DNA of 64,000 nucleotides from Leifsonia sp. EB41 (GTDB lineage Bacteria > Actinomycetota > Actinomycetes > Actinomycetales > Microbacteriaceae), in the NCBI RefSeq assembly GCF_041262565.1, contig NZ_JBGCCJ010000001.1:3100001-3164000 (forward strand), in the 5' to 3' direction. The position numbers and the translations under genes were made by a program. Numbering within the stretch: the stretch's first letter is position 1; each line of letters opens with the position of its first letter. The notes under the pieces were generated by a model. The model saw nothing but the letters and a program-made list of their open reading frames with translations. It ran no database searches and was not told the DNA's origin. Positions 37,983 to 63,604 of the stretch are shown one piece after another.

Positions 37983-38039
37983 CGAGGGGCACGTCGTTGT
38001 CGCTTTCCACACGGAAAAGCGACAACGACGTGCCCCTCG
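37983..38039. repeat. 57-bp palindromic repeat, copy 1 (variant core)
   Basis: Perfect 24-bp arms enclose a 9-base loop. The outer 12 bases CGAGGGGCACGT are shared with the copies at 48972 and 63548. The inner part (CGTTGTCGCTTT) is different. It lies 9 bases after the 45-residue ORF and 18 before the methyltransferase. Confidence 0.85.
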
Positions 38040-38057
38040 TGCTTGTAGGTTTGCGGG

Positions 38058-38756
38058 GTGGGTGGTGAGCACGAGCACGAGCACGAGGACGAGGCGCGGG
38101 TCGCGTATGACCTGGTGGCCGAGGACTACGCGGCGCTGCTGGAGGGCGAGCTCGAGAAGCTGCCGATCGAGCGGGCGATGCTGACCGCGTTCGCCGAGCA
38201 GGTCGCCGCGGACGGCGGGGGAGCGGTGGCCGACATCGGCTGCGGTCCCGGCCGGGTGTCCGGGTTCCTCGCCGGCGTCGGGGTGGACGTGCGCGGCGTC
38301 GACCTGTCGCCCGGGATGATCGAGGTCGCGCGACGCGACCACCCCGGCATCCCGTTCGAGGTCGCGTCGATGGCCCGCCTCCCGTACCGGGACGGCGAGC
38401 TCGCCGGCGCGCTGGCCTGGTACTCGATCATCCACATCCCGCAGGAGGAGCAGGACGCCGTGTTCGCCGAGTTCGCGCGCGTGCTCCGGCCGGGAGGCCG
38501 GCTACTGCTCGGCTTTCAGGTGAGCGAGCAGGGTGACGAGGACGTGGTGCACCTGCGGCAGGCGTACGGCCACGAGCTCGATCTGCGCACCCGGCGTCAG
38601 TCGCCCTCCCGCGTGAAGCAGCGCCTGGCCGCGGCCGGCTTCGCTGTGCGGGCGGAGCTGTTCCGGGTGCCGGTGGCTCCCGAGAAGTCGCGGCAGGCGT
38701 TCCTGCTGGCTCAGCGCACGGCCGGCTCCGACTCGGAGGCCGCGTCCGCCTCCTGA
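38058..38756 (+). CDS. class I SAM-dependent methyltransferase
   Basis: This 232-residue enzyme has motif [17 protein letters not shown], an acidic end of strand 2 ([16 protein letters not shown]), motif post-I with [11 protein letters not shown] and motif [17 protein letters not shown] and [14 protein letters not shown]. The N-terminus carries a His/Glu run ([12 protein letters not shown]) that could bind metal but may be incidental. The GTG at 38058 has TAGGTT 6 bases upstream (leaderless). The last 46 bases overlap the convergent permease gene. The substrate is unknown. Confidence 0.87.
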
Positions 38757-40159
38757 GCCGCGTGCGCGCGCACCCGGCCGCGCACCACGTACCAGCCCGC
38801 GACGAGCAGCGGCACGATGATGACGACGGCCGCGCCGACCGTGAAGGTTCCCATCGGGTAGTCGATGAGGATCAGCACCCCGACCACCACGAGGAAGCCG
38901 AGCGTCAGGTAGCTCGTGAACGGCGCCCCGGGCAAGTGGAAGGCAGGCCGGGTGAGCCGGCCGGCCTTGGCGAGCGACTGCAGCTTGAGCTGACAGAGCA
39001 CGATGACCGCCCAGGCCGTGAGCAGGCCGATGGAGGTCAGGTTGATGCCGATCTCGAACGCCTCGGCGGGCACGACCAGGTTCAGGCCGACACCGACCAG
39101 CGCGACGACGCCGGTGATGACGATGCCGCCGTAGGGTACGCCCGCCTTGTTCATCCGCAGCGCGAAGCGGGGCGCCGCACCGCGCAGGGCCAGGGACCGC
39201 GCGATCCGGCCGGTGGAGTAGAAGCCCGCGTTGAGCGAGGAGAGCGCAGCGGTCAGCACGACGAGATTCATGATCGCGTCCGCCCCGTCGACGCCGATGG
39301 ACGAGAAGAAGGTGACGAACGGGCTCTCGCCCGCCGTGAAGGCGGTGTGGGGGAGCAGCAGCGAGAGCAGCAGCACCGACCCCACGTAGAACAGCGCGAT
39401 CCGCACCAGGATCGTGTTGATCGCGCGCGGCATCGTCTTCTCGGGGTTCTCGGTCTCGCCGGCGGCGGTGCCGATGAGCTCGATGGCGCCGTAGGCGAAG
39501 ACGACGCCTTGGACGACCAGGATGAGCGGCAGCACACCGTTCGGGAAGAGGCCGCCGTGGTCGGCGAGCAGCGCGAAACCGGGGGTGCGGCCGTCGACCG
39601 GAGTGCCGAAGACGACGAAGGCGATGCCGATGACGAGGAAGGCGACCAGGGCGACCACCTTGATGAGGGCGAACCAGAACTCCAGCTCGCCGAACACCTT
39701 CACCGAGAGCAGGTTGAGCAGGAGCACCACCGTCAGGGCGACCAGCGCGTAGACCCACTGCGGGACCTCGCCGAGCACCGGGATGTACTTGCCGAAGAAG
39801 TGCATGTAGAGAGCGACCGCCGTCACGTCGACGATGCCGATCATGCCCCAGTACATCCAGTACATCCAGCCGGTCACGAAGGCGAGCTTCTCGCCGTAGA
39901 ACTCGCGGGCGTAGGAGACGAACGAGCCGGAGTCCGGGCGGTGCAGGATCAGCTCGCCCAGCGCACGGAGGATGAGGTAGGCGAACACGCCGCACACCGC
40001 GTAGACGATGAGGAGTCCTGGACCGCCGGAGGCGAGGCGGCCGCCGGCCCCCAGGAAGAGCCCGGTCCCGATCGCGCCGCCGATGGCGATCATCTGGATG
40101 TGCCGTCGCTTGAGGCCCTTGTGATACGTGCCGTCGCCGGCCGGGTCGGTGGAGGTCAT
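38711..40159 (-). CDS. amino acid permease (APC superfamily, AAT family)
   Basis: This 482-residue, 12-segment importer has the family entry motif [20 protein letters not shown], then [39 protein letters not shown] and [20 protein letters not shown] with the conserved E-x-x-x-P-x-K loop. It brings amino acids (GABA, aromatic or basic type, undetermined) in with protons. The ATG at 40159 is chosen because it places the motif at residue 13. An upstream in-frame ATG would cross the MarR operator. It is divergent from marR, so that operator may control both. Confidence 0.92.
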
Positions 40160-40204
40160 CCGGAGAGTCAACCAGGTGAGGTGTGAGATATCGGGCCGAC
40201 TTGA

Positions 40205-40227
40205 TTTATATAGGCCAGCTATATAAA
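40205..40227. promoter_or_regulatory. MarR-type operator
   Basis: TTTATATAG-GCCAG-CTATATAAA is a perfect 9-bp inverted repeat with a 5-base spacer. The right arm contains TATAAA, a -10-like box 8 bases before the marR GTG. It is strikingly AT-rich against the surrounding DNA. Confidence 0.8.
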
Positions 40228-40235
40228 ATGGCTGC

Positions 40236-40718
40236 GTGACCGAAACACTGCACTCCCCGCTCGACACCGCTCAGCTCCGCCAGACCCTCGGCGACCTCGT
40301 CGTCGCCAGCCACCGCCTCACCCGGCTGGCCGCGCACGTCACCGGCAGCACCGAGTCCCCGGCGACCTGGCGGACCCTCAGCGTGCTGCAGACCGTCGGC
40401 GCGATGCGGCTCGGCGAGCTCGCCTCCCAGAGCCGCGTATCCCAGCCCACGATGACCAAGCTCGTGCGCAACCTCGTCGAGTCGGAGTGGGTCAAGCGGA
40501 TCGCCGACGTGGACGACGCCCGCGCCTGGCAGATCGCGATCACCCCGAAGGGCGCCGCCGCGCTCCAGGACTGGCGCGACACGCTGTCGGAGGCCCTCGT
40601 GCCGATGTTCGCCGACCTCCGCGACGACGAGCTGGCCGCCATGCGGGCCACCGTCGAGATCATCGCCTCGCGCGTCGACCTGTCCGCCGCGACGTCGGCG
40701 GCCGTCGGCGGCCGCTGA
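40236..40718 (+). CDS. MarR-family transcriptional regulator
   Basis: This 160-residue winged-helix dimer has the recognition region [20 protein letters not shown] followed by [19 protein letters not shown] and [13 protein letters not shown], the classic MarR beta-hairpin wing. The start is the GTG at 40236, placed 8 bases after the AT-rich operator. The MFS exporter follows 60 bases on with its own ribosome-binding site, so the unit is probably an autorepressed efflux operon. The ligand is unknown. Confidence 0.93.
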
Positions 40719-40778
40719 GGCATTCACCTCACCGTTCACTCTTCATCTCTCTGCAGACCTAGGAGGCCTCACCCGTCC

Positions 40779-42017
40779 ATGTCCCCTCAGAAGCCGGACA
40801 ACATCCTCAAGCAGCCGACCGCCGTCTGGGCCGTCGCGTTCGCGTCGGTCATCGCCTTCATGGGCATCGGCCTCGTGGACCCGATCCTCCCCGCCATCGC
40901 GGCCAGCCTGCAGGCGACCCCGACGCAGACCGAGATGCTCTTCACGAGCTACCTGCTGATCACGGGTGTCGCGATGTTCTTCACGAGCTGGATCTCCAGC
41001 CGCATCGGCGCCAAGCGCACCCTGTTGATCGGCCTCGCGCTGATCGTGGTGTTCGCGCTGGCCGCCGGGCTGTCGCAGAACGTGTGGACGATCATCGGCT
41101 TCCGCGCCGGCTGGGGTCTCGGCAACGCGCTCTTCATCTCCACGGCGCTCGCGACCATCGTCGGAGCCGCCGCGGGCGGGACGTCGGCGGCGATCATCCT
41201 CTACGAAGCCGCGCTGGGCCTGGGCATCGCCATCGGCCCGCTGCTCGGCGGTCTGCTCGGCAGCTGGAGCTGGCGCGGGCCGTTCTTCGGCACCGCGACC
41301 TTGATGGCCATCGGCTTCATCGCGATCGTCGTCATGCTCAAGAAGAACCCGGAGAAGCCCGTCCCGACGAAGCTCTCGGCCCCGTTCCGCGCGCTCGGCC
41401 GGCCCGCGCTGGGCTTCCTGGCCGCCGCCGCGCTGTTCTACAACATCGGCTTCTTCGTGCTGCTGGCGTACACGCCGTTCGCGCTGGCCGACCTCGGCGT
41501 CAAGGACGCGATCACACTCGGGCTGATCTTCTTCGGCTGGGGCGTCGCGCTGGCGGTCACTTCGGTCCTGGTGGCGCCGCTCCTCACGGCGCGGCTGCCG
41601 CGGACCCGCGTGCTGTGGCTGATCATGCCGCTGCTCGCGCTCGACCTGGCCGCCGCCGGCCTGCTGGTGGGCTCGCTGGTCGCGCTGATCGTGTGCGTGA
41701 TCGTCGGCGGGCTGCTGCTCGGCATCCTGAACACCGTGCTGACCGAGTGCGTGATGGAGGCCACCGACCTGCCGCGCGCTGTCGCCTCCAGTGCGTATTC
41801 CGGCGTCCGGTTCCTCGGCGGCGCGATCGCCCCGCCGGCGGCCACCCTGCTGGCGAGCCTGTTCGCCCGGTCGACCCCGTTCTACGCCGGCGCCATCTCG
41901 GTCCTGATCGCCGCTGCCCTGGTCATGCTCGGGCACAAGCACCTCAAGCGCGTCGACGCCCCGCACGAGACGCGCGAGCAGGAGGCGGAAGTCCTGGCTC
42001 TGGCCGACGCGGACTGA
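40779..42017 (+). CDS. MFS transporter (drug-efflux type)
   Basis: This 412-residue, 12-segment protein starts NILKQPTAVWAVAFASVIAF, has the DPILPAIAASLQAT motif of DHA1 exporters, motif A-like SWISSRIGAKRTLLIG and motif C-like EAALGLGIAIGPLLGGLLGS, which marks antiporters. It probably exports toxic compounds by proton antiport. AGGAGG lies 12 bases before the ATG, longer than usual. The upstream MarR likely controls it. A terminator follows. Confidence 0.92.
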   Translation: MSPQKPDNILKQPTAVWAVAFASVIAFMGIGLVDPILPAIAASLQATPTQTEMLFTSYLLITGVAMFFTSWISSRIGAKRTLLIGLALIVVFALAAGLSQNVWTIIGFRAGWGLGNALFISTALATIVGAAAGGTSAAIILYEAALGLGIAIGPLLGGLLGSWSWRGPFFGTATLMAIGFIAIVVMLKKNPEKPVPTKLSAPFRALGRPALGFLAAAALFYNIGFFVLLAYTPFALADLGVKDAITLGLIFFGWGVALAVTSVLVAPLLTARLPRTRVLWLIMPLLALDLAAAGLLVGSLVALIVCVIVGGLLLGILNTVLTECVMEATDLPRAVASSAYSGVRFLGGAIAPPAATLLASLFARSTPFYAGAISVLIAAALVMLGHKHLKRVDAPHETREQEAEVLALADAD

Positions 42018-42037
42018 CCTGAACCGGTTCAAAAAGC

Positions 42038-42072
42038 GAAGAGCCGCCCTGTCCTAGTCAGGGCGGCTCTTC
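42038..42072 (+). terminator. terminator after the MFS gene
   Basis: GAAGAGCCGCCCTG and CAGGGCGGCTCTTC form a perfect 14-bp stem with a 7-base loop, preceded by AAAAAGC. Confidence 0.8.
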
Positions 42073-42115
42073 CCGTACGCGCCGAAGCGTCGGTACGGAC
42101 GGACTGTCGGCGGTC

Positions 42116-42142
42116 GATCGTGCCTACCCGAAAGGCGCGATC
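42116..42142 (-). terminator. possible terminator of the LacI-ABC operon
   Basis: GATCGTGCCT and AGGCGCGATC pair (one G-T) around a 7-base loop, 116 bases past the LacI stop on the minus strand. No U-run follows. Confidence 0.4.
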
Positions 42143-42257
42143 GGCCAACGGCCGCATGACCTATTGTTTCAGATCGCGGGACGCTGATCGTTCATATCCG
42201 GACGGATTCGTGCAAATCCGCAATGATTCACCCGGCGCGTGTACGGATTCGCAGGGC

Positions 42258-43265
42258 TCAGCGCGGCGGCGCGGTCGATCGGCGCATCACAAGATGCGCA
42301 GATGAGCGCACCGATCCGGTCCGCGGCTCTCCGCCGCCCAGCTCGTCCAGGAGGATGCGCGTCGCCACCGCCCCCTGCTCGAACGGGCTCTGCGCCATCG
42401 TGGTGAGCCCGAAGCACTCCGCGAAATCGTGGTCGTCGATGCCGATGACGGAGAGGTCCTCCGGCACGCGCAGTCCGTGATCGCCCGCGGCGAGGATCGC
42501 GCCCATCGCCATCTCGTCCGAGCCGGCGAACACCGCCGTCGGGCGCGGGCCCGGGCGGTCGAGCAGTCGGTTCATCGCCGCGCGGCCCTCGGGGAGGGAG
42601 AACCCGCCGGGGATGACCCACTCCGGCCGCACCGGGAGGTGGGCGGACTTCATGGCCTTCTCGAAACCCCGCAGGCGCCCGAGCGGGACGTTGCTGTTGA
42701 GGCCTTCCTCGTCCTCGCCGCCGATGTGCGCGATGTCGGTGTGACCGAGGCCGATCAGGTGGTTCGTGGCCTCCTTGGCGGTGGCCTTCTCGTCGATCCC
42801 GACGCTGCGCAGCCCCTTGACCGGCCCACCGACCACGATGGTCGGGTGGCCGAGCGATGCGAGCTGCTCGCGCTCGTCCGGCGTGAAGTCGAGGCACAGC
42901 GCCAGCAGCGCGTCCGTGCGCTTGCGCAGGATGCTGCGGTGGAAGACCCGCTCCCGGTCGCCGCGATGGCCGCCCAGGTTGAACAGGATCATGTCGTAGC
43001 TGGCCGAGCGCAACTCCGCGTCGACGCCCTCCAGCACCTGCGTGTAGAACCAGCGGCTCACCGAGGGGACGACGACGCCGAGCGCCAGGGTGCGCCCGCT
43101 GGCCAATCCTGACGCGCTCGACGACGCGACGTAGCCGAGCTCGTCGGCGGCGCGCCGCACCGCTGCGCGCGTCGTGTCCGACACGTTGGGGAGCCCCCGC
43201 AGCGCCCGCGAGACCGTCGCCGTGGAGACGCCGGTCGCGCGCGCGACCTCCTCGATCCCTGCCAT
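42258..43265 (-). CDS. LacI-family transcriptional regulator
   Basis: This 335-residue repressor has the N-terminal HTH GIEEVARATGVSTATVSRAL with hinge helix, then the periplasmic-binding-protein-like sugar domain (VVVPSVSRWFYTQVLEGVDA, GLGHTDIAHIGGEDE, AVFAGSDEMAMGAILAAGDH, VIGIDDHDFAECFGLTTMAQ). It is the last gene of the sugar ABC operon, 11 bases after the small membrane protein. It most likely represses the SBP promoter through the twin sites at 46933-46959. The inducer sugar is unknown. Confidence 0.93.
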   Translation of the reverse strand: MAGIEEVARATGVSTATVSRALRGLPNVSDTTRAAVRRAADELGYVASSSASGLASGRTLALGVVVPSVSRWFYTQVLEGVDAELRSASYDMILFNLGGHRGDRERVFHRSILRKRTDALLALCLDFTPDEREQLASLGHPTIVVGGPVKGLRSVGIDEKATAKEATNHLIGLGHTDIAHIGGEDEEGLNSNVPLGRLRGFEKAMKSAHLPVRPEWVIPGGFSLPEGRAAMNRLLDRPGPRPTAVFAGSDEMAMGAILAAGDHGLRVPEDLSVIGIDDHDFAECFGLTTMAQSPFEQGAVATRILLDELGGGEPRTGSVRSSAHLVMRRSTAPPR

Positions 43266-43275
43266 GATCCCCCCG

Positions 43276-43512
43276 TCAGGAGTCCTGGCCCGCTCGTGCC
43301 TCCTCCGCCCGCAGGCGCGCCGCCACGATGCGGTGGCGCGCCTGCAACAGAGCGATGAAGATCACGACGAGCACGAGCGAGATCAGCGCCCACGTCAGCG
43401 CGGGTTGACCGGTCAGCTCGCAGACGGCTGTGATGATCGCGAAAGCCGCCCCGAAGAAGCCGACGAAGCCGAGGCCGATCTCGACGAGCTCCTTCGGGTC
43501 GGTCACGCGCAT
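43276..43512 (-). CDS. small two-segment membrane protein in a sugar ABC operon, 78 aa
   Basis: A short acidic start (MRVTDPKELVE) is followed by two hydrophobic helices (about 11-31 and 38-56) and a charged Arg/Glu helix (ARHRIVAARLRAEEARAG). It begins 3 bases after the MalG-type gene stop and ends 10 bases before lacI, so it is cotranscribed with the transporter. I recognise no family. It may be an accessory subunit or regulator of the permease, by context only. Confidence 0.7.
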   Translation of the reverse strand: MRVTDPKELVEIGLGFVGFFGAAFAIITAVCELTGQPALTWALISLVLVVIFIALLQARHRIVAARLRAEEARAGQDS

Positions 43513-43515
43513 CGG

Positions 43516-44430
43516 TCAGCCCTTCACTCCACCTGCGGTCAGGCCCGCCACGATCCGGCGCTGGAAGATCAGCACCAGGATGATGAGCGGGACGGTCACG
43601 ATCGTACCGGCTGCCATGATGGCGGTGTACGGCTCCTGGTGCGGCTGGCTCCCGGTGAACGAGGCGATGGCGACCGTCACCGGCTGCGTCGCGTCGCTCG
43701 AGAGCTGGCTGGAGATCAGGAACTCGTTCCAGGACGAGATGAACGCCAGGATCGCGGTCGTGAACACGGCGGGCGCCGCCAGCGGCAGGATGATCTTGCG
43801 GAACGCCTGCGCCTGGGTGCACCCGTCGATCCGTGCGGCCTCCTCCAGGTCCCACGGCATCTCGCGGAAGAACGAGACGAGCGTGTAGACCGTCAGCGGG
43901 AGGGCGAACGAGATCTCCGGGATGATCAGCGCCTGGTAGGTGCCCATCCACCCGATGTTCGTGAAGAGCTGGAACAGCGGGGTGATGAGCGCGACGCCCG
44001 GGAACATCGAGGCGGCGAGGATGATGCCGAGCACGATGCCCTTGCCCAGGAACTCCAGGCGGGCGAGCGCGTACGAGGCGAAGATGCCGACGACCAGGGA
44101 GATCACGGTGACGCAGACGCCGATGAACAGCGAGTTCAGCAGCGCCTGGCCGAGGTGGTTGCCCAGGTTGGTCGACAGTGCCGTCACGTAGTTGTCGAAC
44201 GTGATGTGCGTGAACCACGGCGTGTTGTCACTGGTGTAGCCGACGTCGCGGAACGACGTCACGACCATCCAGTAGAACGGCAGCAGACACCACAGCACGA
44301 TGACCAGCGCCTGCACGATGGTGCGGGTGTTCTGGTTGCGGTTGCGGGATCGCGTGCGGCTCTTCGTGCGCGGGCGGGCGGGTGCGTTCGTGTCGGAGGT
44401 GGCCGTTGTGGGGCCGGCGACGGTGGTCAT
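43516..44430 (-). CDS. carbohydrate ABC transporter permease (MalG type)
   Basis: This 304-residue protein has an Arg/Asn/Thr-rich cytoplasmic tail, then six membrane segments. The EAA loop, DLEEAARIDGCTQAQAFRKI, contacts the ATPase. FPGVALITPLFQLFTNIGWM is typical of MalG relatives. The ATG at 44430 shares one base with the MalF stop (TGATG). No ATPase gene is in the operon, so a shared MsiK-like ATPase elsewhere is expected, as in many actinobacteria. Confidence 0.93.
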   Translation of the reverse strand: MTTVAGPTTATSDTNAPARPRTKSRTRSRNRNQNTRTIVQALVIVLWCLLPFYWMVVTSFRDVGYTSDNTPWFTHITFDNYVTALSTNLGNHLGQALLNSLFIGVCVTVISLVVGIFASYALARLEFLGKGIVLGIILAASMFPGVALITPLFQLFTNIGWMGTYQALIIPEISFALPLTVYTLVSFFREMPWDLEEAARIDGCTQAQAFRKIILPLAAPAVFTTAILAFISSWNEFLISSQLSSDATQPVTVAIASFTGSQPHQEPYTAIMAAGTIVTVPLIILVLIFQRRIVAGLTAGGVKG

Positions 44431-45461
44431 CACTTCGCTCCCTTCGCTTGCGTCTCCTGCGTTCGCACCACGTTCGTGCCGAGGAACCGCACGAAGATGA
44501 ACGCGACCAGGAAGATCAGGATGAACGTGATGGTGGAGAGGGCGGCAGCGCTGTTGAAGCCCTGCCTGATCTGATCGACCACGAGGATGGACAGTGTCGT
44601 CGTCGCATGGCCTGTGCCACCGCCGCCGCCTGTCAGGATCTGCGGCAGGTCGTAGATGCGGAGGGCGTCGAGGGTGCGGAACAGGATCGCGACCATCAGC
44701 GCCGGCTTCAGCAGCGGCATCGTGACGCGCCAGAAGCGCTGCCACGTGCTCGCGCCGTCCATCTTCGCCGCCTCGTAGACGTCCTCCGGGATGATCTGGA
44801 GGCCGGCCAGGATGAGCAGCGCCATGAACGGCGTCGTCTTCCAGGTGTCGGCGATGATGACCGCGAACCGGGACGCCCATTCGTCGCTCGTCCAGAGGAT
44901 GTGCGCGTTGAGGACGGCGTTCGCGACACCGGCGACCGAGAAGATGAAGAACCAGAGCTTGGCGGTGACGGCGGTGGGGATCGCCCACGGGATCAGGATG
45001 GCCGCGCGGACGAAGCCGCGGCCGCGGAAGGCGCGGTTCATGATGAGCGCGAACCAGAGGCCGAGGACGGTCTCGAGGATGACGGTCGTGATCGTGAAGA
45101 AGAAGGTGACCCCGACGGCGCTCCAGAAGGTGGAGCCGAGGTTGCCGGGCGGGCACGAGACCGTGGTCCCGTTCGGGCCGGCGCACTGCTGGAACAGCCA
45201 GTGGGCGTAGTTCTGGAATCCGGCGAAGCCGCCCTGGACGAACAGGCCCGTCGCCGGGTCGAGCCCTGCGTCCTTCTGGAACGACATCACGACGGCGCTG
45301 ACGATCGGGTACCCGATCACGATGGCGAGCAGGATCAGCGTGGGGAGGATGAGGTAGAGGGCCCAGCGGCTCTGCTGGCGGCGGGTGTGCTTGACTCCGG
45401 CGCGCTGCTCGGGCGGCCTGTTATTTGTTGCTGAGGGGGCGACGACGTTCGACGTTGACAT
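44430..45461 (-). CDS. carbohydrate ABC transporter permease (MalF type)
   Basis: This 343-residue, six-segment permease has an EAA loop PEDVYEAAKMDGASTWQRFW followed by RVTMPLLKP. A long first outside loop carries two Cys residues (QQCAGPNGTTVSCPPG) that could form a disulfide. The ATG follows GGAGG by 6 bases. It is coupled to the MalG-type gene and lies 82 bases after the binding-protein gene. Confidence 0.93.
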   Translation of the reverse strand: MSTSNVVAPSATNNRPPEQRAGVKHTRRQQSRWALYLILPTLILLAIVIGYPIVSAVVMSFQKDAGLDPATGLFVQGGFAGFQNYAHWLFQQCAGPNGTTVSCPPGNLGSTFWSAVGVTFFFTITTVILETVLGLWFALIMNRAFRGRGFVRAAILIPWAIPTAVTAKLWFFIFSVAGVANAVLNAHILWTSDEWASRFAVIIADTWKTTPFMALLILAGLQIIPEDVYEAAKMDGASTWQRFWRVTMPLLKPALMVAILFRTLDALRIYDLPQILTGGGGGTGHATTTLSILVVDQIRQGFNSAAALSTITFILIFLVAFIFVRFLGTNVVRTQETQAKGAK

Positions 45462-45543
45462 GTGCGGCCTCCGGGGAGAAAGCGGTGGGGGTGGGGAGCC
45501 GGGCGGCGGGAATGGTCCCGCCGCCCGGCGACCGTGGTGGGGC

Positions 45544-47067: not shown

Positions 47068-48955
47068 GTGAGCGGAATGCGTGGCATGGTCGGAGGCGGC
47101 GGTCCCATGCGCTCGCGGGTCAGCACCGGCGACGCGGCGGCCCAGCGGGCGCTGAACGCGGAGGCGCCGCGCATCCCGCACCTGTTCCGCCGGATCGTGT
47201 CGCTGTTCGCCGCACACAGGGCCGCCATCATCATGACGATGGTGCTGGTGCTGATCGGTGCTGCGCTGTCCGTCGTCCCGCCGCTGCTCACCCAGCGCGC
47301 CTTCGACCACGGGCTGTTCCCGAAGTCCGGGACGCCGGACATGCCGGTGCTGATCGAGATCGTCGTGATCATGATCGTGGTCTTCGTCGGGTCAGCGCTG
47401 CTCGGCGTCTGGCAGACCTACCTGACCTCGTCGGTCGGCAACAAGGTGATGGGCGCGCTGCGGGTGCGGCTGTTCTCGCACCTGCAGTCGATGGAGCTGA
47501 GCTTCTTCACCAAGACCAAGACCGGCATCATCCAGTCGCGGCTGCAGAACGACGTCGGCGGCGTCGCCAACGTGCTCACCAACACCATGTCGAGCATCCT
47601 CGGCAACACGGTCACGGTGATCGCGGCGCTGGTGGCGATGCTGCTGCTCAACTGGCAGCTCACCATCGTGGCGGTCATCCTGATGCCCATCCTGGTGATC
47701 GCCCAGCGCCGGGTCGGCCAGGTGCGCGCACGGATCGCGACCCGGACCCAGGAGTCGCTGTCGGACATGACCGCGATCACGCAGGAGACGCTGAGCGTGT
47801 CCGGCATCCTTCTCTCGAAGAGCTTCAACCGGCAGCAGGCCGAGATCGAGCGCTACTCGGACGAGAACCGGACCCAGATCCGGCTGCAGGTGTCGCAGTC
47901 GATGAGCGGGCAGTGGTTCTTCGCGATGGTGAACATCTTCCTGTCGTCCATCCCGGCGATCGTCTACCTGGTCTCGGGCTGGCTGATCCTCGGCGGGGCG
48001 ACGGACATCACCGGCGGGCACGATCGTCGCGTTCACGACGGTGCAGGCGCGGCTGCTGTTCCCGCTGCTCGCGCTCATGCGGGTGGCGCTGGACCTGCAG
48101 ACCTCCGGCGCCCTGTTCGCCCGGATCTTCGAGTACCTCGACCTGAAGCCGGCCATCGCCGACCGGCCGGACGCCGTGCCGGTCGACCCGGGCCGCGACC
48201 TCGGCCGCATCGAGTTCGACCACGTGGTGTTCCGCTATCCGGACGCCCGGCCGGGGGAGCGCAACACCCTGGACGACGTGTCGTTCACGATCGAGCCCGG
48301 CGAGTTCGCCGCGTTCGTCGGGCCGAGCGGCGCGGGCAAGACCACGGTGAGCTACCTCATCCCGCGGTTCTACGACACGACCTCCGGGCGCATCGTGTTC
48401 GGGGACACCGACCTGCGCGACCTGCAGCAGGACTCCCTGGTCTCGCACATCGGCGTGGTCAGCCAGGAGACCTACCTCTTCCACGCGACCATCGCCGAGA
48501 ACCTCCGGTACGCGCGTCCGGACGCGACGCAGGCCGAACTGGAGGCCGCGGCGACTCGGGCGAACATCCACGAGACGATCGTGAGCTTCCCGGACGGCTA
48601 CGACACGATCGTGGGGGAGCGCGGCTACCGGCTGTCGGGCGGCGAGAAGCAGCGCATCGCGATCGCGCGGGTGCTGCTGAAGGACCCGGAGGTGCTCATC
48701 CTCGACGAGGCGACGAGCGCGCTCGACACCATCTCGGAGCGGGTCGTGCAGCAAGCGCTGGACACAGCCTCCCGCGGGCGCACGACCATCGCGATCGCGC
48801 ACCGGCTGTCCACGATCGTCGCCGCGGACGTCATCTTCGTGATCGACCACGGGCAGGTGGTCGAGCGCGGGACGCACCGCGAGCTCCTGGAGGTCGGCGG
48901 CGTCTACGCGCGCCTGTACCGCGAGCAGACCGAGACCGCCCTCCTCGACGACTGA
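47068..48955 (+). pseudogene. ABC multidrug exporter half-transporter, frameshifted by one G
   Basis: The first ~317 codons (47068 to about 48018) encode an ABC membrane domain with six segments (IIMTMVLVLIGAALSVVPPL, TSSVGNKVMGALRVRLFSHL, FFTKTKTGIIQSRLQNDVGG). At 48011-48020 an extra G (GGCGGG for GGCGG) shifts the frame. The next frame continues exactly: IVAFTTVQARLLFPLLALM, then Walker A GPSGAGKTT, Q-loop VVSQETYL, signature LSGGEKQRI, Walker B VLILDEATSALD and H-loop AHRLST. Total length without the G is 628 residues, normal for the family. TAGGCT lies 6 bases before the GTG start. It is a pseudogene or a sequencing error. Confidence 0.85.
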
Positions 48956-48971
48956 CCCCTTCTCCCGGCGC

Positions 48972-49028
48972 CGAGGGGCACGTGAACGCCCCTAAAAGGG
49001 TGTTGTAGGGGCGTTTACGTGCCCCTCG
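48972..49028. repeat. 57-bp palindromic repeat, copy 2
   Basis: The arms CGAGGGGCACGTGAACGCCC continuing with CTA pair with the right half with one mismatch. It shares the core AACGCCCCTA with copy 3 at 63548. It lies 16 bases after the ABC exporter stop and 4 before the metal box at 49033. Confidence 0.85.
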
Positions 49029-53626: not shown

Positions 53627-53633
53627 TCCGGCC

Positions 53634-55676: not shown

Positions 55677-55686
55677 GGGACGCTCC

Positions 55687-57153: not shown

Positions 57154-57233
57154 GGCACGTCCTCCCCGTGGCCGGTCGGTCCGGCCGATGGCGGGAAAAT
57201 AACGTGGAACGCGAGAGGGCGTCTAGAGGCGGG

Positions 57234-57440
57234 TCAGAACGCGAACTGCGCCCACTCCGTCCGGTCGAGGCTCACGCGCTCGCCGTGCCTCTCCACCACC
57301 CAGTGCGAGGGCGTCCCCGCCAGATACGTGCAGAGCACGGTCTCACTGCTCCAGCCGTCCGCGGACCGGATCCATCTCACCAGATGGATGTCCTGGCCCG
57401 GTTTCGGCGCGTTCCCGATCGGCGTCTCGTAGGTCGTCAC
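57234..57440 (-). CDS. small hypothetical protein, 68 aa
   Basis: The GTG at 57440 follows GGGGAGGGG by about 6 bases. The product is a compact mixed fold (YETPIGNAPKPGQDIHLVRW, CTYLAGTPSHWVVERHGERV) with many Trp and charged residues. No family is recognised. An in-frame ATG at 57551 would add 37 low-complexity residues. It lies 80 bases before the DUF1254 start on the same strand. Confidence 0.55.
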   Translation of the reverse strand: MTTYETPIGNAPKPGQDIHLVRWIRSADGWSSETVLCTYLAGTPSHWVVERHGERVSLDRTEWAQFAF

Positions 57441-57604
57441 GCTGCACCCCTCCCCAGTTGTGCAACCGGTCCCTGGGTCGTCGGAGGTGCGCCTGACATC
57501 GCTTCCGCCGGCTCGGGACTGGCTCCTGGACCACACCCTAGTGGGGTACAAGCCCGGGGGACAAGAGGAACGGGGTGAACAGGAGGGGACAGCTCGTGGT
57601 CCGT

Positions 57605-57766
57605 TCAGATTCCGGGGTCGTCCTCGTCGTCCGCCGCCGCGTCGTCCTCCGGCTCGAAGACGCCGTCGGCGTCGTACGGTCCGCCGCCTTCGCCCTCGGC
57701 CAGGGCGTCGACGTCGATGGGCTCGCCGGAGGGGGTCTCCGGCCAGTTCTCTCGTTCATCGGTCAT
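57605..57766 (-). CDS. small acidic hypothetical protein, 53 aa
   Basis: This short gene starts at the ATG at 57766, with TACCAT 6 bases upstream, and reads MTDERENWPETPSGEPIDVD onward to ...AADDEDDPGI. About one third of the residues are Asp or Glu, with only two basic residues, so it is probably unstructured. High third-position GC supports coding. It is divergent from the aldo/keto reductase. The function is unknown. Confidence 0.6.
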   Translation of the reverse strand: MTDERENWPETPSGEPIDVDALAEGEGGGPYDADGVFEPEDDAAADDEDDPGI

Positions 57767-57858
57767 GCCGTGATGGTAGGGCCGATCGCGGTACTCGCAG
57801 TACCTCCCATTCGTGCGGTGTCCCCGCGTAACGTCGTGGGGGAGAGGAGAACGAGACT

Positions 57859-58827
57859 ATGGAGTACACACGACTGGGGTCGACCGGCCTGACGGTCAGC
57901 CGCCTCGCACTGGGCTGCATGAGCTTCGGCGACACATCGCGCGGCTTCAACGAGTGGGCACTGGACGACGAGGGCGCCGCACCGATCTTCCGCCAGGCCG
58001 TTGAGGCCGGCATCACCTTCTGGGACACCGCCAACGTCTACGGCTTCGGCAGCTCGGAGGAGATCGTCGGCCGCGCCATCCGCGAGTACACGAAGCGCGA
58101 GGACATCGTGCTGGCGACCAAGCTGAACTTCAAGATGCACGACGGCCCCGGCGGCGCGGGCCTCTCGCGCCGCGCGATCCTCGAGCAGATCGACGCCTCG
58201 CTGCAGCGACTCGGCACCGACTTCGTCGACCTCTACCAGATCCACCGCTTCGACCCGCTGACCCCGGCGGAGGAGACGATGGAGGCGCTGCACGACGTGG
58301 TCAAGGCGGGCAAGGCCCGCTACATCGGCGCCTCGTCGATGTGGGCGTGGCAGTTCGCCAAGCTCCAGCACGCGGCCGACCTCGGCGGCTGGACGCGGTT
58401 CGCGACCATGCAGGACCAGTACAGCCTGATGATGCGCGAGGAGGAGCGGGAGATGTTCCCGCTGCTGGCGGACCAGGGCGTCGGCAGCCTCCCATGGAGC
58501 CCGCTCGCGAAGGGCCGGCTGACGCGGCCGTGGGGCGAGCAGACGCTGCGCGGCGAGACCGACCCACTGCAGGCGCGGTACTCCGAGGAGCACGACAAGC
58601 CGATCGCGGAGGCCGTGCAGCGGGTTGCGGAGGCGCGCGGCGTCCCGATGGCGCAGGTCGCGCTGGCCTGGGTGCTGCGCAACCCGGTCGTGGACGCCCC
58701 GATCGTCGGCGCGACGAAGCCGCACCACCTCCCGGACGCCGTGGCGGCCGTGCACCTGGAGCTGACGGAGGACGAGGTGCACGCGCTCGAAGAGCCCTAC
58801 ACGGTCACGATGCCGACGGGGTTCTGA
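57859..58827 (+). CDS. aldo/keto reductase
   Basis: This 322-residue NADPH-dependent barrel enzyme begins YTRLGSTGLTVSRLALGCMS. The catalytic tetrad is Asp in TFWDTANVYGFG with its Tyr, Lys in VLATKLNF and His in YQIHRFDPLTP. The end RGVPMAQVALAWVLRNPVVD followed by APIVGATKPHHL is typical of YajO/Gcy-like groups. AGGAGAACGAG precedes the ATG. The 50-bp palindrome follows 12 bases after the stop. It probably reduces aldehydes or ketones, substrate unknown. Confidence 0.92.
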   Translation: MEYTRLGSTGLTVSRLALGCMSFGDTSRGFNEWALDDEGAAPIFRQAVEAGITFWDTANVYGFGSSEEIVGRAIREYTKREDIVLATKLNFKMHDGPGGAGLSRRAILEQIDASLQRLGTDFVDLYQIHRFDPLTPAEETMEALHDVVKAGKARYIGASSMWAWQFAKLQHAADLGGWTRFATMQDQYSLMMREEEREMFPLLADQGVGSLPWSPLAKGRLTRPWGEQTLRGETDPLQARYSEEHDKPIAEAVQRVAEARGVPMAQVALAWVLRNPVVDAPIVGATKPHHLPDAVAAVHLELTEDEVHALEEPYTVTMPTGF

Positions 58828-58838
58828 CCGCGAACGAA

Positions 58839-58888
58839 CTGACAGGACACGCCGCCCGCGATGTTGTCGAGGCGGCGTGTCCTGTCAG
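58839..58888. repeat. 50-bp palindromic repeat, copy 2 (shared terminator)
   Basis: The arms CTGACAGGACACGCCGCC pair perfectly over 18 bp with a 14-base loop. Left flank CGCGAACGAA is the same as in copy 1 at 22514. It lies between convergent aldo/keto reductase and thioredoxin genes and overlaps the thioredoxin stop. Confidence 0.85.
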
Positions 58889-59274
58889 TTAGATCGTTGG
58901 GCCCCGGGCTCCTCGGCCTTCGCCTCGGCGATGGACGCGCGGACCGCGTCCATGTCGAGCGCCTTGACCTGGGTGATCAGGTCCTGGAAGGTCGGGGCGG
59001 GGAGTGCGCCCGGCTGCGAGAACACCAGGATGCCGTCGCGGAACGCCATCAGCGTCGGGATGGAGGTGATCCCGGCGGAGGCGGCGAGCGCCTGCTCGGC
59101 CTCGGTGTCGACCTTGCCGAACACGACGTCGGTGTGCTCCTGCGACGCCTTCTCGAAGACCGGGCCGAACATGCGGCACGGGCCGCACCATTCCGCCCAG
59201 AAGTCGACGAAGACGATGTCGTTCTCGGTGATCTTGGACTCGATGTTCTGAGCGGTGAGCTCGACGGTAGCCAT
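58885..59274 (-). CDS. thioredoxin
   Basis: This 129-residue cytoplasmic disulfide reductase has the active site W-C-G-P-C in FWAEWCGPCRMFGPVFEKAS, the cis-Pro region ITSIPTLMAFRDG and the usual starting strand. The tail after residue 105 is somewhat long (ALDMDAVRASIAEAKAEEPG). It is a second-type thioredoxin and not obviously linked to a reductase gene here. The stop overlaps the 50-bp palindrome. Confidence 0.93.
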   Translation of the reverse strand: MATVELTAQNIESKITENDIVFVDFWAEWCGPCRMFGPVFEKASQEHTDVVFGKVDTEAEQALAASAGITSIPTLMAFRDGILVFSQPGALPAPTFQDLITQVKALDMDAVRASIAEAKAEEPGAQRSN

Positions 59275-59372
59275 GACGAGTGCAACGGCACGCCGGCCTC
59301 CGACATTCCCCGTCCGCCATCGAGCAGGAATGGAGAAGCACCCCGGCCGTGCCCGCGCCTACCGTGATTCCC

Positions 59373-59981
59373 ATGACCTCCATCGACCACATCACCCTCG
59401 AGGTGGCGGACGCCTCCGCCGCCCAGCAGTTCTACGACGCCGCCTTCGGGCTCGGCGACCGGGTGCGCGTGCGCGCCTCCGACACCCCCTCCACCGGCTT
59501 CCGCGGCTACACGATGTCCATCACGGTCGCTCAGCCGGCCGACGTGACCGCCTACGTGGAGGCCGCGCTCGCCGCGGGCGCGACGACCATCAAGCCGGTC
59601 GCCAAGAGCTTCTGGGGCGTCGGCGGCACCGTGCAGGCGCCGGACGGCGCGATCTGGAAGATCGCGACCTCCGAGAAGAAGGACTCCGGCCCGGCCAAGC
59701 GCGAGCCCGAGTCGGTCGTGCTGCTGCTCGGCGTCGACGATGTGGGCGCGAGCAAGCAGTTCTACGCCGCACGCGGCCTCCCGGTCGGCAAGAGCTTCGG
59801 CTCCTACGTGCAGTTCGACCTGAAGGACAGCCCGGTGCAGCTCGGCCTCTACAAGCGGCGGGCGCTGGCCAAGGACGCGGGCGTCGCGGAGGACGGGTCC
59901 GGCTCGCACCGCATCGTCATCGGCGGCGAAAGCGCAGCGACCGATCCGGACGGCTTCGCCTGGGAGACCGCAGCCGACTGA
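59373..59981 (+). CDS. VOC/glyoxalase-family protein, 202 aa
   Basis: Two beta-alpha-beta-beta-beta modules are visible: IDHITLEVADASAAQQFYDA, then ESVVLLLGVDDVGASKQFYA with GSHRIVIGGESAATDPDGFA at the end. Conserved His and Glu residues suggest metal binding in the first half only, so it may be a binding protein or a dioxygenase/lyase relative. TACCGT lies 7 bases before the ATG (leaderless). The stop TGA is the first codon of a 17-base tandem repeat. Confidence 0.82.
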   Translation: MTSIDHITLEVADASAAQQFYDAAFGLGDRVRVRASDTPSTGFRGYTMSITVAQPADVTAYVEAALAAGATTIKPVAKSFWGVGGTVQAPDGAIWKIATSEKKDSGPAKREPESVVLLLGVDDVGASKQFYAARGLPVGKSFGSYVQFDLKDSPVQLGLYKRRALAKDAGVAEDGSGSHRIVIGGESAATDPDGFAWETAAD

Positions 59982-60029
59982 GCGGCGCAGCATGCTGAGC
60001 GGCGCAGCCGGCTGATCGGCGCAGCATAG
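59979..60029. repeat. three tandem 17-base repeats
   Basis: TGAGCGGCGCAGCATGC, TGAGCGGCGCAGCCGGC and TGATCGGCGCAGCATAG follow each other without a gap. The first includes the VOC stop codon. It looks like recent slippage. Confidence 0.8.
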
Positions 60030-60107
60030 GAACCCCTCAGAACCTCCATCGACCGGGCATAACGTCGCGAAAGGTCACAGGTAGGTAACGGCGGCAGGGT
60101 TGCTGCC

Positions 60108-61403
60108 ATGTCCCAGCCAACGCCACTCTCGCTCGACATCGTCGTGCCCGTGTACAACGAGCAGCCGACGCTCGACACGTCCCTCCGCCGGCTGCACGCC
60201 TACCTGACCGACACGGTGCAGGCGAGCTGGCGGATCACGATCGCCGACAACGCCAGCACCGACGCCACACCCGCCCTCGCGGACGCGCTCGCCGGGGAGC
60301 TGAGCGGGGTCGTCGCCGTGCACCTCCCGCTGAAAGGTCGCGGACGCGCCCTGAAAGCGGTGTGGGGCTCCTCGCCCGCCGAGGTCCTCGTCTACCTGGA
60401 CGAGGACCTCTCCACCGACCTCGCCGCCCTGCCGCCGCTGGTGGCGCCGCTGCTCTCCGGCCACTCCGACCTCGCGATCGGGACCCGGCTGGGCAGGAGC
60501 GCGCGCGTCACGCGGGGCGGCAGGCGCGAGTTCATCTCCCGCAGCTACAACCTGCTGCTGCGCCGCACGATGTCGGTCGGGTTCAGCGACGCGCAGTGCG
60601 GCTTCAAGGCCATCCGCCGGGATGTCGCCCAGCGTCTCCTCCCGCTCGTGGAGGACGACGGCTGGTTCTTCGACACCGAGCTGCTGATCCTCGCCGAGCG
60701 TGCAGGGCTGCGCATCCACGAGATCCCCGTCGACTGGGTGGACGACCCGCACAGCTCGGTGGACATCGTGCGCACTGCCCGCGAAGACCTCAAGGGGATG
60801 CTGCGCGTCGGCACGAACATCGCGCGCGGCCGCATCCCGATCGAGGCCGTCTACGCGGAGCTCGGGCGGCGGCCGTTCGCGCCGCCGACGCCGCCGAGCT
60901 TCTTCGGCCAGGTCGTGCGGTTCGCGATTGTCGGTGTGCTCTCGACCGCGGCGTACGCGCTGCTGTACCTGCTGCTGTCCGGTGTGCTCGGCGGTCAGGC
61001 GGCGAACTTCGCTGCCCTGCTGCTGACGGCGGTGGCCAACACCTGGGCCAACCGGCGCTTCACGTTCGGTGTGCGCGGACGGCCCGGGATGGTGCGGCAT
61101 CAGTTCCAGGGGCTGGTCGTGTTCGGGATCGCGTGGGCGCTGACCAGCGGGTCGCTCGCGGTGCTGCACGCCACGGCGCCCGGTGCGCCCGCCAGGGTCG
61201 AGCTGATCGTGCTCACGGCGGCGAACCTGTTCGCGACGCTCGTGCGGTTCGTGCTGCTGCGGCTGTGGGTGTTCCGGGCGGGGAGGCGGCGGGCGGTGGT
61301 CGAGGCCGATCCCGTCGGGCCATCCGATCCCGTCAGGCCATCCGATCCCGGGCCGCTTCCCGACACCGCCCTCATTCTCGTCCCGACCGAAACGGAGAAG
61401 TGA
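60108..61403 (+). CDS. GT2 glycosyltransferase fused to a GtrA domain
   Basis: This 431-residue protein has a cytoplasmic GT2 (DPM1-like) domain (SLDIVVPVYNEQPTLDTSLR, ADNASTDAT, VYLDEDLSTD with the metal-binding acids, CGFKAIRRD, VDWVDDPHSSV) and a C-terminal four-segment GtrA membrane domain (FFGQVVRFAIVGVLSTAAYA, ANTWANRRFTFGVRGR, NLFATLVRFVLLRLWVFR). Such fusions make and flip polyprenyl-phosphate sugars. The stop is 3 bases before the GT39 gene, which would use the product. Confidence 0.92.
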   Translation: MSQPTPLSLDIVVPVYNEQPTLDTSLRRLHAYLTDTVQASWRITIADNASTDATPALADALAGELSGVVAVHLPLKGRGRALKAVWGSSPAEVLVYLDEDLSTDLAALPPLVAPLLSGHSDLAIGTRLGRSARVTRGGRREFISRSYNLLLRRTMSVGFSDAQCGFKAIRRDVAQRLLPLVEDDGWFFDTELLILAERAGLRIHEIPVDWVDDPHSSVDIVRTAREDLKGMLRVGTNIARGRIPIEAVYAELGRRPFAPPTPPSFFGQVVRFAIVGVLSTAAYALLYLLLSGVLGGQAANFAALLLTAVANTWANRRFTFGVRGRPGMVRHQFQGLVVFGIAWALTSGSLAVLHATAPGAPARVELIVLTAANLFATLVRFVLLRLWVFRAGRRRAVVEADPVGPSDPVRPSDPGPLPDTALILVPTETEK

Positions 61404-61405
61404 TC

Positions 61406-63541
61406 ATGTCCGTCACGACAGCACCCAGCCCGAGCGCACCCAGCACGACCGTCCCCGCCTCCACCTCCGAGCCCCGTCGCTCCACCGCCTGGCTGCGCCG
61501 CCTCGTGCGCGGCAGGGAGGGCGCCGCCGCCTGGGAGCGCCCGGCGCTGCTCGGCCTGCTGGCCGTCACCGCGCTCCTCTACCTCTGGGACCTCGCCGCC
61601 AGCGGCTGGGCCAACTCCTTCTACTCAGCCGCCGTGCAGGCCGGGTCGGTGAACTGGGAGGCCTTCTTCTACGGGTCCAGCGACGCCGCGAACTCGATCA
61701 CGGTCGACAAGCCTCCCGCGAGCCTCTGGATCATGGCCCTCTCGGTGCGGATCTTCGGCCTCAGCTCGTGGAGCATCCTCGTGCCGGAGGCGCTGATGGG
61801 CGTCGCGACCGTGTGGCTCGTCTACCTGATCGTGCGCCGCAACTTCAGCGCGCGGACCGCGCTGCTCGCGGGCGGCGTGCTGGCGGTGACACCGGTGGCG
61901 GCGCTGATGTTCCGGTTCAACAACCCGGACGCGCTGCTCGTGCTGCTGCTGACACTGGCGACCTACCTGACCCTGCGCGGCATCGAGTCCGGGCGCATCC
62001 GTTGGGTGATCTGGGCGGGCGTCGCGGTCGGCTTCGGGTTCCTGACCAAGCAGCTCCAGGCGTTCCTCATTCTCCCGGTGCTCGCCGGGGTCTACCTGGC
62101 GGCGGCGCGGATCTCCTGGGCGAAGCGCTTCGGCCACCTGTTCGCGGCGCTCGGCGCGGTGGTCGTCGCCGCGGGCTGGTGGGTCGCGATCGTCCAGGTC
62201 GTCCCCGCCTCCTTGCGGCCGTACATCGGCGGTTCGCAGACCAACAGCTTCCTGGAGCTGACCTTCGGCTACAACGGGCTCGGCCGCCTCACCGGCAACG
62301 AGACCGGCAGCGTGACCGGCGGCCGGGGCGGCGCGACGGGAGGCGGGATGTGGGGAGCCACCGGCATCCTGCGCCTGTTCGAGAACGAGGTCGGCGGCCA
62401 GATCGCCTGGCTGCTCCCGGCGGCGCTCGTGCTGTTCGTCGTGGCGCTCCTGCTCGGCCGCCGGATGGCGCGCACCGACGCCCGCCGCGCGACCCTCCTG
62501 CTGTTCGGCGGCTGGCTGATCGTGACCGCGGTCGCGTTCTCGTTCATGGCCGGCATCTTCCACGCCTACTACACGGTCGCGCTGGCCCCGGCGCTCGCCG
62601 GCGTCGTCGCGATCGGCGCCTCGGCGGTCTGGGGTGCCCGCGACCGGCTGTGGGTGCGCATCCTCTCGGCCGTGACCATGCTCGGCACCGCGGTGTGGGC
62701 GTGGGTGCTGCTCGACCGCGCGACCTCCTGGCTCCCGTGGCTGAAGGTGGTCGTCCTCGCCGTCGCGCTCGCGGCGTCCGTGCTGCTGCTCCTTCCCCCG
62801 CGCAGCCGGGCGCTGTCAGGCGCGACCATCGCCGCGACGCTGGTGGCGGCGCTGCTCGCGCCCACCGCGTACACGCTGCAGACCGTGACCACGGGGCACA
62901 GCGGGTCGATCGTGACCGCGGGGCCGACCGTGGCGGGGGCGATGGGCGGGCCGGGCGGCGGGCGCGGATTCGGCGGGGCGCCCACCGGCGGCGGGGGCGC
63001 GCCGGGTGGCGGCTTCGGCGGACAGGGCGGGTTCCCCGGGACCGGTGGGACGAACGGCGGGACCGGCGGGACGGCAGGCGGGACCGGCGGGACGGCCGGC
63101 GGCACCGGCGGCACGACGGGCGCGCAGGGCGGCACGACGGGCGGCGCCACCGGGGCACCCGGCGCTGCGCGCGGCGGCGGAATGGGCGGCCTCCTCGGCT
63201 CCAGCACGGTCAGCTCCCAGCTCAGCGCCTTGCTGAAGGCGAACGCCTCCTCCTACACCTGGGTGGCGGCGGCGATCGGCTCCAACTCCGCGGCGGGCTA
63301 CCAGCTCGCGACCCAGGAGGCCGTGATGCCGATCGGCGGCTTCAACGGCTCCGACCCGTCACCCACGCTGGCGCAGTTCGAGCAGTACGTGAAGGAAGGA
63401 AAGGTCCACTACTTCATCGCCGGCGGGGTCGGCCAGGCCAACGGCGGGAGCAGCGCCTCCAGCGCCATCGCCTCCTGGGTCGAGAAGAACTACACCGCGA
63501 CGACAGTGGGAGGTGTCACCCTCTACGACCTGACGAAGTGA
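61406..63541 (+). CDS. GT39/ArnT-like membrane glycosyltransferase with Gly-rich domain
   Basis: This 711-residue transferase uses a polyprenyl-phosphate sugar as donor. It has ~12 membrane segments, DKPP (101-104) and FNNPDALL (171-178) of the family, and FFYGSSDAANSITVDKPPAS at the first catalytic loop. After the membrane part come ~100 residues dominated by Gly, Thr and Ala (about 510-605) with GGTGG-type repeats, then a folded C-terminal domain ending YTATTVGGVTLYDLTK. The ATG at 61406 has GGAG upstream. The linkage to the GT2-GtrA gene supports surface protein or glycopolymer glycosylation. Confidence 0.92.
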   Translation: MSVTTAPSPSAPSTTVPASTSEPRRSTAWLRRLVRGREGAAAWERPALLGLLAVTALLYLWDLAASGWANSFYSAAVQAGSVNWEAFFYGSSDAANSITVDKPPASLWIMALSVRIFGLSSWSILVPEALMGVATVWLVYLIVRRNFSARTALLAGGVLAVTPVAALMFRFNNPDALLVLLLTLATYLTLRGIESGRIRWVIWAGVAVGFGFLTKQLQAFLILPVLAGVYLAAARISWAKRFGHLFAALGAVVVAAGWWVAIVQVVPASLRPYIGGSQTNSFLELTFGYNGLGRLTGNETGSVTGGRGGATGGGMWGATGILRLFENEVGGQIAWLLPAALVLFVVALLLGRRMARTDARRATLLLFGGWLIVTAVAFSFMAGIFHAYYTVALAPALAGVVAIGASAVWGARDRLWVRILSAVTMLGTAVWAWVLLDRATSWLPWLKVVVLAVALAASVLLLLPPRSRALSGATIAATLVAALLAPTAYTLQTVTTGHSGSIVTAGPTVAGAMGGPGGGRGFGGAPTGGGGAPGGGFGGQGGFPGTGGTNGGTGGTAGGTGGTAGGTGGTTGAQGGTTGGATGAPGAARGGGMGGLLGSSTVSSQLSALLKANASSYTWVAAAIGSNSAAGYQLATQEAVMPIGGFNGSDPSPTLAQFEQYVKEGKVHYFIAGGVGQANGGSSASSAIASWVEKNYTATTVGGVTLYDLTK

Positions 63542-63547
63542 CGCCCT

Positions 63548-63604
63548 CGAAGGGCACGTAAACGCCCCTAAAACGCCGTTTTAGGGGCGTTTACGTGCCC
63601 CTCG
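63548..63604. repeat. 57-bp palindromic repeat, copy 3
   Basis: It is palindromic over its whole length with one mismatch near the left end (CGAAGGGC against GCCCCTCG). The core AACGCCCCTAAAA is shared with copy 2. It lies 6 bases after the GT39 stop. Confidence 0.88.

What the first reader, a model, noticed from the sequence alone, without database searches (positions are those of the whole stretch)
37983..63604. Family of 57-bp near-perfect palindromes after stop codons
Three elements, 37983-38039, 48972-49028 and 63548-63604, are each exactly 57 bp, share the outer arms CGAGGGGCACGT / ACGTGCCCCTCG, and lie 6-16 bases after a stop codon. Two share the inner core AACGCCCCTA, while one has a different core with compensating changes. 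This modular form is more than an ordinary terminator and suggests a mobile or gene-converted palindrome (REP/MITE-like) used as a terminator.
Basis: partly seen in the sequence, partly recalled or inferred. Interest (0 to 1): 0.72.

Follow-up and report, generated by a model that had tools for sequence, protein, structure and literature searches.

The report
Mobile palindromes paired with a nuclease
The three 57-base mirror-image sequences belong to a family of about ninety copies scattered at gene ends in this bacterium, and related bacteria suggest that each such family travels with its own predicted DNA-cutting enzyme, which may be a previously unrecognised kind of mobile-DNA partnership.

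Summary
The three palindromes are real. They belong to a family (F1) with 94 places in the 4.16 Mb genome, a Leifsonia. Of 77 copies read, 76 are exactly 57 bp: two inverted, conserved half-sites around a variable centre. Within a core type the arms vary independently, without G-U excess or U-tract, so RNA hairpin constraint does not explain the conservation. 74 of 77 lie just after a stop codon, 46 of 77 between convergent genes. In close relatives many of the same sites are empty or hold a different palindrome: copies come and go.

No RAYT was found (0 of 28 genomes). Instead a protein with AbiEi-like and Vsr-nuclease folds is encoded between F1 copies; relatives have other such nucleases between other palindrome families. 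Nuclease tree and palindrome family agree (15 changes for 15 families; shuffles 31-37). F1-clade nucleases were found in just the six genomes rich in F1. The arrangement recurs in Paraoerskovia and Actinomycetospora. AbiEi is reported to bind 23-bp inverted half-sites. Best reading: a REP/RAYT-like system built on an unrelated nuclease. Binding, cutting and movement are untested.

The parts
37983..38039 (.). F1 element 1, core type A, 57 bp; predicted half-sites 37983-38005 and 38017-38039, variable centre 38006-38016
   Evidence: half-site limits from column conservation of type A
48972..49028 (.). F1 element 2, core type B, 57 bp; conserved arms reach about 27 bp from each end in type B, leaving a centre of about 3 bp (48999-49001)
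   Evidence: arm limits
63548..63604 (.). F1 element 3, core type B, 57 bp, left arm CGAAGGGCACGT; conserved arms about 27 bp, centre about 63575-63577
37836..37973 (+). small predicted ORF (45 aa) whose stop lies 9 nt before element 1; no Pfam match
48041..48955 (+). ABC transporter ATPase part (PF00005), stop 16 nt before element 2
61400..63541 (+). mannosyltransferase-like gene (PF13231, PF24878), stop 6 nt before element 3

Best explanation
The 57-bp palindromes are the dispersed, non-autonomous part of a two-component system. Each copy is a pair of inverted half-sites around a variable centre (23-11-23 in type A, about 27-3-27 in type B). The second component is a ~292-aa protein with an AbiEi-like N-terminal part and a Vsr-type nuclease C-terminal domain, encoded between two copies of the same palindrome elsewhere in the genome (G000:C1 ~1.0742-1.0751 Mb, outside the window). 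SHOWN: copy number, fixed size, half-site constraint, gain/loss and replacement between close relatives, bracketing of nuclease genes by one palindrome family, and agreement of nuclease clade with palindrome family across the genus, with the same bracketing in two other actinobacterial genera. INFERRED: two protomers bind the two half-sites through the AbiEi-like part and the nuclease domains cut in the unconserved centre. INFERRED, less sure: such cutting drives spread and homogenisation of the palindromes, by homing-like repair or by excision and re-joining, so that a genome's palindromes follow its current nuclease. Copies survive mainly behind stop codons, where they do least harm and perhaps also help to end transcripts. 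It works like REP/RAYT but is not related to it.
Confidence: 0.7

Rival explanations
1. Bidirectional transcription terminators kept alike by selection or gene conversion, without a mobile system.
For: 46 of 77 copies convergent and 28 tandem just after a stop, 2 divergent, 1 inside a predicted gene; strong predicted hairpins, mean -44 kcal/mol; other hairpins stand at the same 3' site in most relatives (by eye).
Against: U-tract in only 7 of 120 windows; no G-U over A-C preference in tandem copies, 22 against 22; no arm covariation within type; fixed 57 bp and near-absence of solo arms; sites empty in close relatives; in Actinomycetospora the same 57-bp arms enclose cores that are not fully palindromic and occur at 5' as well as 3' gene ends; does not predict the nuclease match.
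Confidence: 0.12
2. The nucleases are regulators or defence genes and the palindromes are their operators; scattered copies are a regulon or 'self' marks, not mobile DNA.
For: AbiEi binds a 23-3-23 operator upstream of its own gene (PMC3985639, passages); palindromes lie upstream of the nuclease start in many loci; half-sites are constrained in sequence.
Against: A regulon predicts sites at promoters, but 74 of 77 lie at 3' ends; palindromes stand on both sides of many nuclease genes; sites differ between close relatives; genes lying between close F1 pairs look like ordinary metabolic genes (names recalled).
Confidence: 0.13
3. REP/REPIN elements moved by a RAYT tyrosine transposase.
For: Inverted doublets, many extragenic copies, enzyme gene flanked by copies, as described for REPIN/RAYT (PMC3116915 abstract and passages; PMC2817692 passages).
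Against: PF01797 in 0 of 28 genomes; no GT(A/G)G head.
Confidence: 0.02

Closest known systems
REP/REPIN elements with RAYT transposases (Gammaproteobacteria)
   Same: Dispersed extragenic inverted repeats, several families, an enzyme gene flanked by its own repeat family.
   Different: Enzyme is a predicted Vsr-type nuclease with an AbiEi-like part, not a Y1 (HUH) transposase; no GT(A/G)G head; fixed 57/58-bp unit; Actinobacteria.
AbiE type IV toxin-antitoxin operator
   Same: AbiEi-like fold; pair of inverted half-sites with the best-conserved part outermost, 23 bp each in type A.
   Different: Centre 11 bp (type A) instead of 3; nuclease domain fused on; dozens of copies across the genome rather than one operator.
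Vsr-fold homing endonucleases (I-Bth0305I)
   Different: Here the site itself is dispersed and lies on both sides of the gene.
MTES_1575 / DUF559 REase family (PF18741, PF04480)
   Same: C-terminal domain matches weakly; the family was described as a Vsr REase fold in a Microbacterium protein (PMC3710099, passages).
   Different: Small stand-alone two-domain proteins bracketed by palindromes; no such association appears in the passages read.

Membership tests
REP/REPIN with RAYT | GT(A/G)G head on each repeat (PMC2817692) | tested here: not met
   Half-sites begin CGAR, flank consensus CCGY
REP/REPIN with RAYT | Y1 tyrosine transposase in the genome | tested here: not met
   PF01797 in 0 of 28 genomes; control genomes ring in 5 of 14
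REP/REPIN with RAYT | Many extragenic copies as inverted pairs | tested here: met
   94 places; 76 of 77 read copies not inside a predicted gene
MITE of a DDE insertion sequence | Target-site duplication | tested here: not met
   No clear excess of flanking direct repeats of 2-6 nt over shuffled pairs at five offsets; largest 3 against 1.3 expected. Old duplications could have decayed
MITE of a DDE insertion sequence | Parent element with the same ends and a transposase | tested here: inconclusive
   The gene family found repeatedly between same-family ends is the nuclease; no general transposase search was made
Canonical intrinsic terminator | U-tract after the stem | tested here: not met
   7 of 120 windows with 4 or more T in 8 nt
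Canonical intrinsic terminator | Ends transcription | not testable with these tools
   No transcript data
AbiEi DNA-binding fold | AbiEi-like fold in the N-terminal part | tested here: met
AbiE toxin-antitoxin | AbiEii toxin gene beside it | not tested
   Not searched for
Vsr-type nuclease | Vsr fold with invariant acidic residues | tested here: met
Homing endonuclease | Cuts the site it inhabits | not testable with these tools
   Needs biochemistry
DNA uptake sequences | Mostly solitary copies (recalled) | tested here: not met
   98 of the 100 listed arms lie in 56/57-bp pairs

The most novel reading that the evidence does not exclude
A widespread, undescribed class of two-component mobile DNA in Actinobacteria: lineage-specific palindromes of about 50-70 bp, each copied and homogenised by its own AbiEi-Vsr nuclease, with enzyme and site co-diverging. 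This would give a function to many orphan DUF559/MTES_1575 proteins and would be a REP-like system run by a nuclease instead of a transposase.
Probability: 0.55. Interest if true: 0.92.

Novelty: categorically new. Interest (0 to 1): 0.87.

Why it matters
REP-like palindromes are abundant in bacteria, but the cognate enzyme I know of is the RAYT (recalled; PMC2817692 passages). Here some fifteen palindrome families pair nearly one-to-one with clades of a nuclease family without a known function, and the bracketing recurs in three actinobacterial genera. If the nuclease binds and cuts its palindrome, this is a new way for short non-coding DNA to spread, a ready set of matched long-site nucleases, and a direct test of how repeats and their enzymes co-evolve.

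Tried and rejected
RAYT/IS200 as mobiliser: PF01797 absent. RNA hairpin constraint: no G-U bias, no covariation within type. Target-site duplications: no clear excess. Rfam: only a tRNA in the window. Phages: three weak partial matches, E 0.6; plasmids: none (one element each). Class-wide pattern search: own genome plus 2 single 3-mismatch places among 394 genomes. Exact hits outside Leifsonia with other lengths (Saccharomonospora, Lentzea and others, 45-54 bp) look like ordinary hairpins; the 57-bp pattern gave 0 in the Saccharomonospora and Lentzea genomes searched. Ordinary-looking genes lying between close F1 pairs were not followed as partners. Sequence search of solved structures gave only two matches at E 0.08-0.09.

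Literature: 10 searches. One search listed 19 held papers with DUF559, MTES_1575 or PF18741; no title or abstract start there ties these nucleases to palindromic repeats; of them I read only the MTES_1575 passages of PMC3710099. Only open-licence papers are held, so absence from print is not claimed. That such actinobacterial proteins are often annotated as AbiEi-domain proteins, what is known of I-Bth0305I beyond its PDB title, and gene names are recalled.

Counts that lean: the element set is 77 of 94 (those whose place could be read from truncated lists); the strict nuclease control dropped 9 short and 3 edge loci of 83; one search dropped 19 of 40 comparisons, and two G020 sites called empty keep a 7-nt stub (1219311) or a degenerate inverted repeat (1358596). 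The 124 nucleases come from PF18741 hits at E 1e-3 with the ~1255-aa proteins left out, plus some found with profile A1.

Full report
OBSERVATION. The three 57-bp elements are present as described, with one correction: the left arm of the third is CGAAGGGCACGT. The host is a 4,162,015-bp single-contig genome. The arm 11-mer occurs 62+68 times against 2+0 for the reversed control. The two-armed pattern at 57 bp occurs at 94 places with up to 3 mismatches, control 0.

ANATOMY. I read 77 of the 94 copies with flanks: 76 are 57 bp and one is 56. Of the 76, 45 are core type A (TYGTTGTCACTT) and 31 type B (AAACGCCCCTAAAA); by halves they are 45 A/A, 30 B/B and one B/unassigned, so none mixes A with B. 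Within a type the halves are independent: pairing between real arms equals pairing between shuffled arms in all six comparisons, and position 13 of type A assorts freely. Conservation is at the level of the half-site: positions 2, 3, 5-10, 12 and 17-19 of type A are the same in 90 of 90 half-sites, while positions 24-28 are 52-68%. Type A thus reads 23 bp, 11 bp variable, 23 bp; in type B the conserved arm runs to about position 27 (82-90% at 24-27), leaving about 3 bp. Conservation also reaches a few bases outside (CCGY). In tandem copies non-Watson-Crick pairs are G-U 22 and A-C 22, and 7 of 120 downstream windows have 4 or more T in 8 nt, so nothing points to selection on an RNA hairpin.

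POSITION. With a simple codon-based gene finder, 46 of 77 are convergent, 28 tandem, 2 divergent and 1 inside a predicted gene; 74 lie from -14 to 71 nt after a stop, median 12. Convergent gaps make up about 15% of intergenic bases in the same regions (p = 6e-20; the regions were chosen around elements, so the null is approximate).

RELATIVES AND MOVEMENT. F1 copies with up to 3 mismatches: G027 119, G010 95, G000 94, G008 56, G020 52, G025 31, and 0-6 in the other 22 genomes of the genus. Orthologous sites can keep an element while the core type differs (for example 768352: A in G000, B in G020). At the 3' end of one conserved 440-aa gene, F1 stands in G000, G025, G027, G008 and G010; a different 58-bp family (F2, CGARACGTGAGTCGTTGCGG) in G024, G020, G011 and G002; a third (F3, CGAGTACACGAAAA and variants) in several others; short hairpins in G005 and G012; and by eye none in G017, G018 and G023. 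F3 arms number 10-66 per strand in eight genomes and none in the six F1-rich ones. In a 400-kb stretch of the two nearest relatives, 8 of 12 comparable sites in G020 and 5 of 9 in G024 are empty; 8 and 11 sites were not comparable. F1 thus behaves as a gained and lost dispersed repeat. No clear target-site duplication was seen.

OTHER GENERA. An exact scan of genomes of 84,980 species found the arm pair in Leifsonia, in Actinomycetospora, once in Paraoerskovia, and in a few scattered genomes with other lengths. Six Actinomycetospora genomes searched hold 8-23 copies of the 57-bp form and Paraoerskovia 7. In Actinomycetospora the inner part is not fully palindromic (TTSCGCATGATCGAC... on one side) and copies lie at both 5' and 3' gene ends (gene finder trained on Leifsonia). 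So the conserved thing is a pair of inverted outer half-sites at a set distance rather than a full hairpin.

THE PARTNER. Y1 transposases were not found (0 of 28). An ORF at G000:C1:1074189-1075143 lies between F1-A copies 1074149 and 1075152; at the same locus G024 and G020 hold a diverged homologue between two F2 copies. The protein matches REase_MTES_1575 (PF18741) and DUF559 weakly. PF18741 finds matches in 28 of 28 Leifsonia genomes at E 1e-3, in 14 of 28 over the curated cut-off. I fetched flanks of these loci. Of the first 83 loci, 14 have a hairpin in the window on both sides and 38 on one. Where both sides could be classified the families agree in 14 of 15; the odd one (L409) was a pattern miscall, both sides carrying CTCACTTTCTC.

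CONTROLS. Same-family palindromes on both sides: 7 of 71 nucleases against 2 of 563 other genes, and those two are the G024 and G020 nucleases themselves (coordinates). In 864 kb of sequence not chosen for nucleases the only two same-family hairpin pairs 600-1600 nt apart both enclose a nuclease; 0 of 8 other pairs do. On a 73-row tree, 45 labelled nucleases with 15 palindrome families need 15 changes, against 31-37 in 200 shuffles (labels by hand-written patterns). Over the genus census (124 nucleases, 77 with a palindrome), palindromes share 9 nt or more in 29 of 29 pairs at 70% or more protein identity, 86 of 232 at 55-70%, 73 of 263 at 45-55%, 95 of 1235 at 35-45%, 9 of 171 below 35%, and 15 of 996 where BLAST finds no match; shuffled means are 3.2, 24.6, 27.4, 129, 17.8 and 104.8 pairs. 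The top bin may hold the same locus inherited with its flanks; the middle bins and the swap at the G000/G024/G020 locus carry more weight. The similarity is graded: nucleases 59-66% identical to the F1 ones carry CGAAGTTCACGTAGTTGCG, CGAAGTGCACGTAGTGG, CGAGTTGCACGTTGTGG and CGAAGTGCTCGACGTTGC, visibly related to CGARGGGCACGTYGTTGTC.

F1 IN PARTICULAR. F1-clade nucleases were found in G000, G020, G027, G008, G025 and, frame-shifted, G010 (G010 by its F1 flank and identity, not in the tree): the six genomes with 31 or more F1 copies. 57-bp copies flank the gene on both sides in five, some of them diverged, and on one side in G010. Core type follows too: A-like copies flank the G000 and G010 genes, B-like those of G020, G027 and G008. 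Against this, G000 holds many B copies but no B-clade nuclease was found. The bracketed arrangement recurs in Paraoerskovia and in A. callitridis, with three 57-bp copies around the gene. Other Actinomycetospora nucleases are bracketed by other palindromes.

VERDICT. The association is well supported; binding, cutting and movement are predictions.

Noticed in passing
window 22514-22563 and 58837-58890: A second palindrome family, CTGACAGGACACGCCGCC..., 50 and 54 bp, with a further copy at G000:C1:3901868; a similar-looking hairpin stands at the conserved 3' site in G006. No nuclease was linked to it.
   Followed up: no
window 47068-48955: The ABC transporter gene before element 2 reads as a membrane-like part in one frame and an ATPase part (48041-48955) in another, which suggests a frame shift or sequencing error.
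   Followed up: no
L465, L471, L479, L480 (Actinomycetospora): Further nuclease genes of this kind bracketed on both sides by other matched palindromes (for example TGGTTACTGGCTCGTATCGC, 51 bp), so the pairing is not confined to F1.
   Followed up: partly
L408 (G010): The F1-clade nuclease of G010 is split by a frame shift although the genome holds 95 F1 copies, perhaps a family that has recently lost its enzyme.
   Followed up: no
G000:C1 771552 and 4073530: A palindrome family CGTGACTAATCGCGGGAATCC with two copies in the regions read; its arms resemble F2.
   Followed up: no
G024 L327, L328, L331, L333: Two copies of a 51-bp palindrome GGGGTCGCAACACGCCG and several of ATTCGTGACGAATG in 400 kb; both families also lie beside nuclease genes elsewhere in the genus.
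   Followed up: partly
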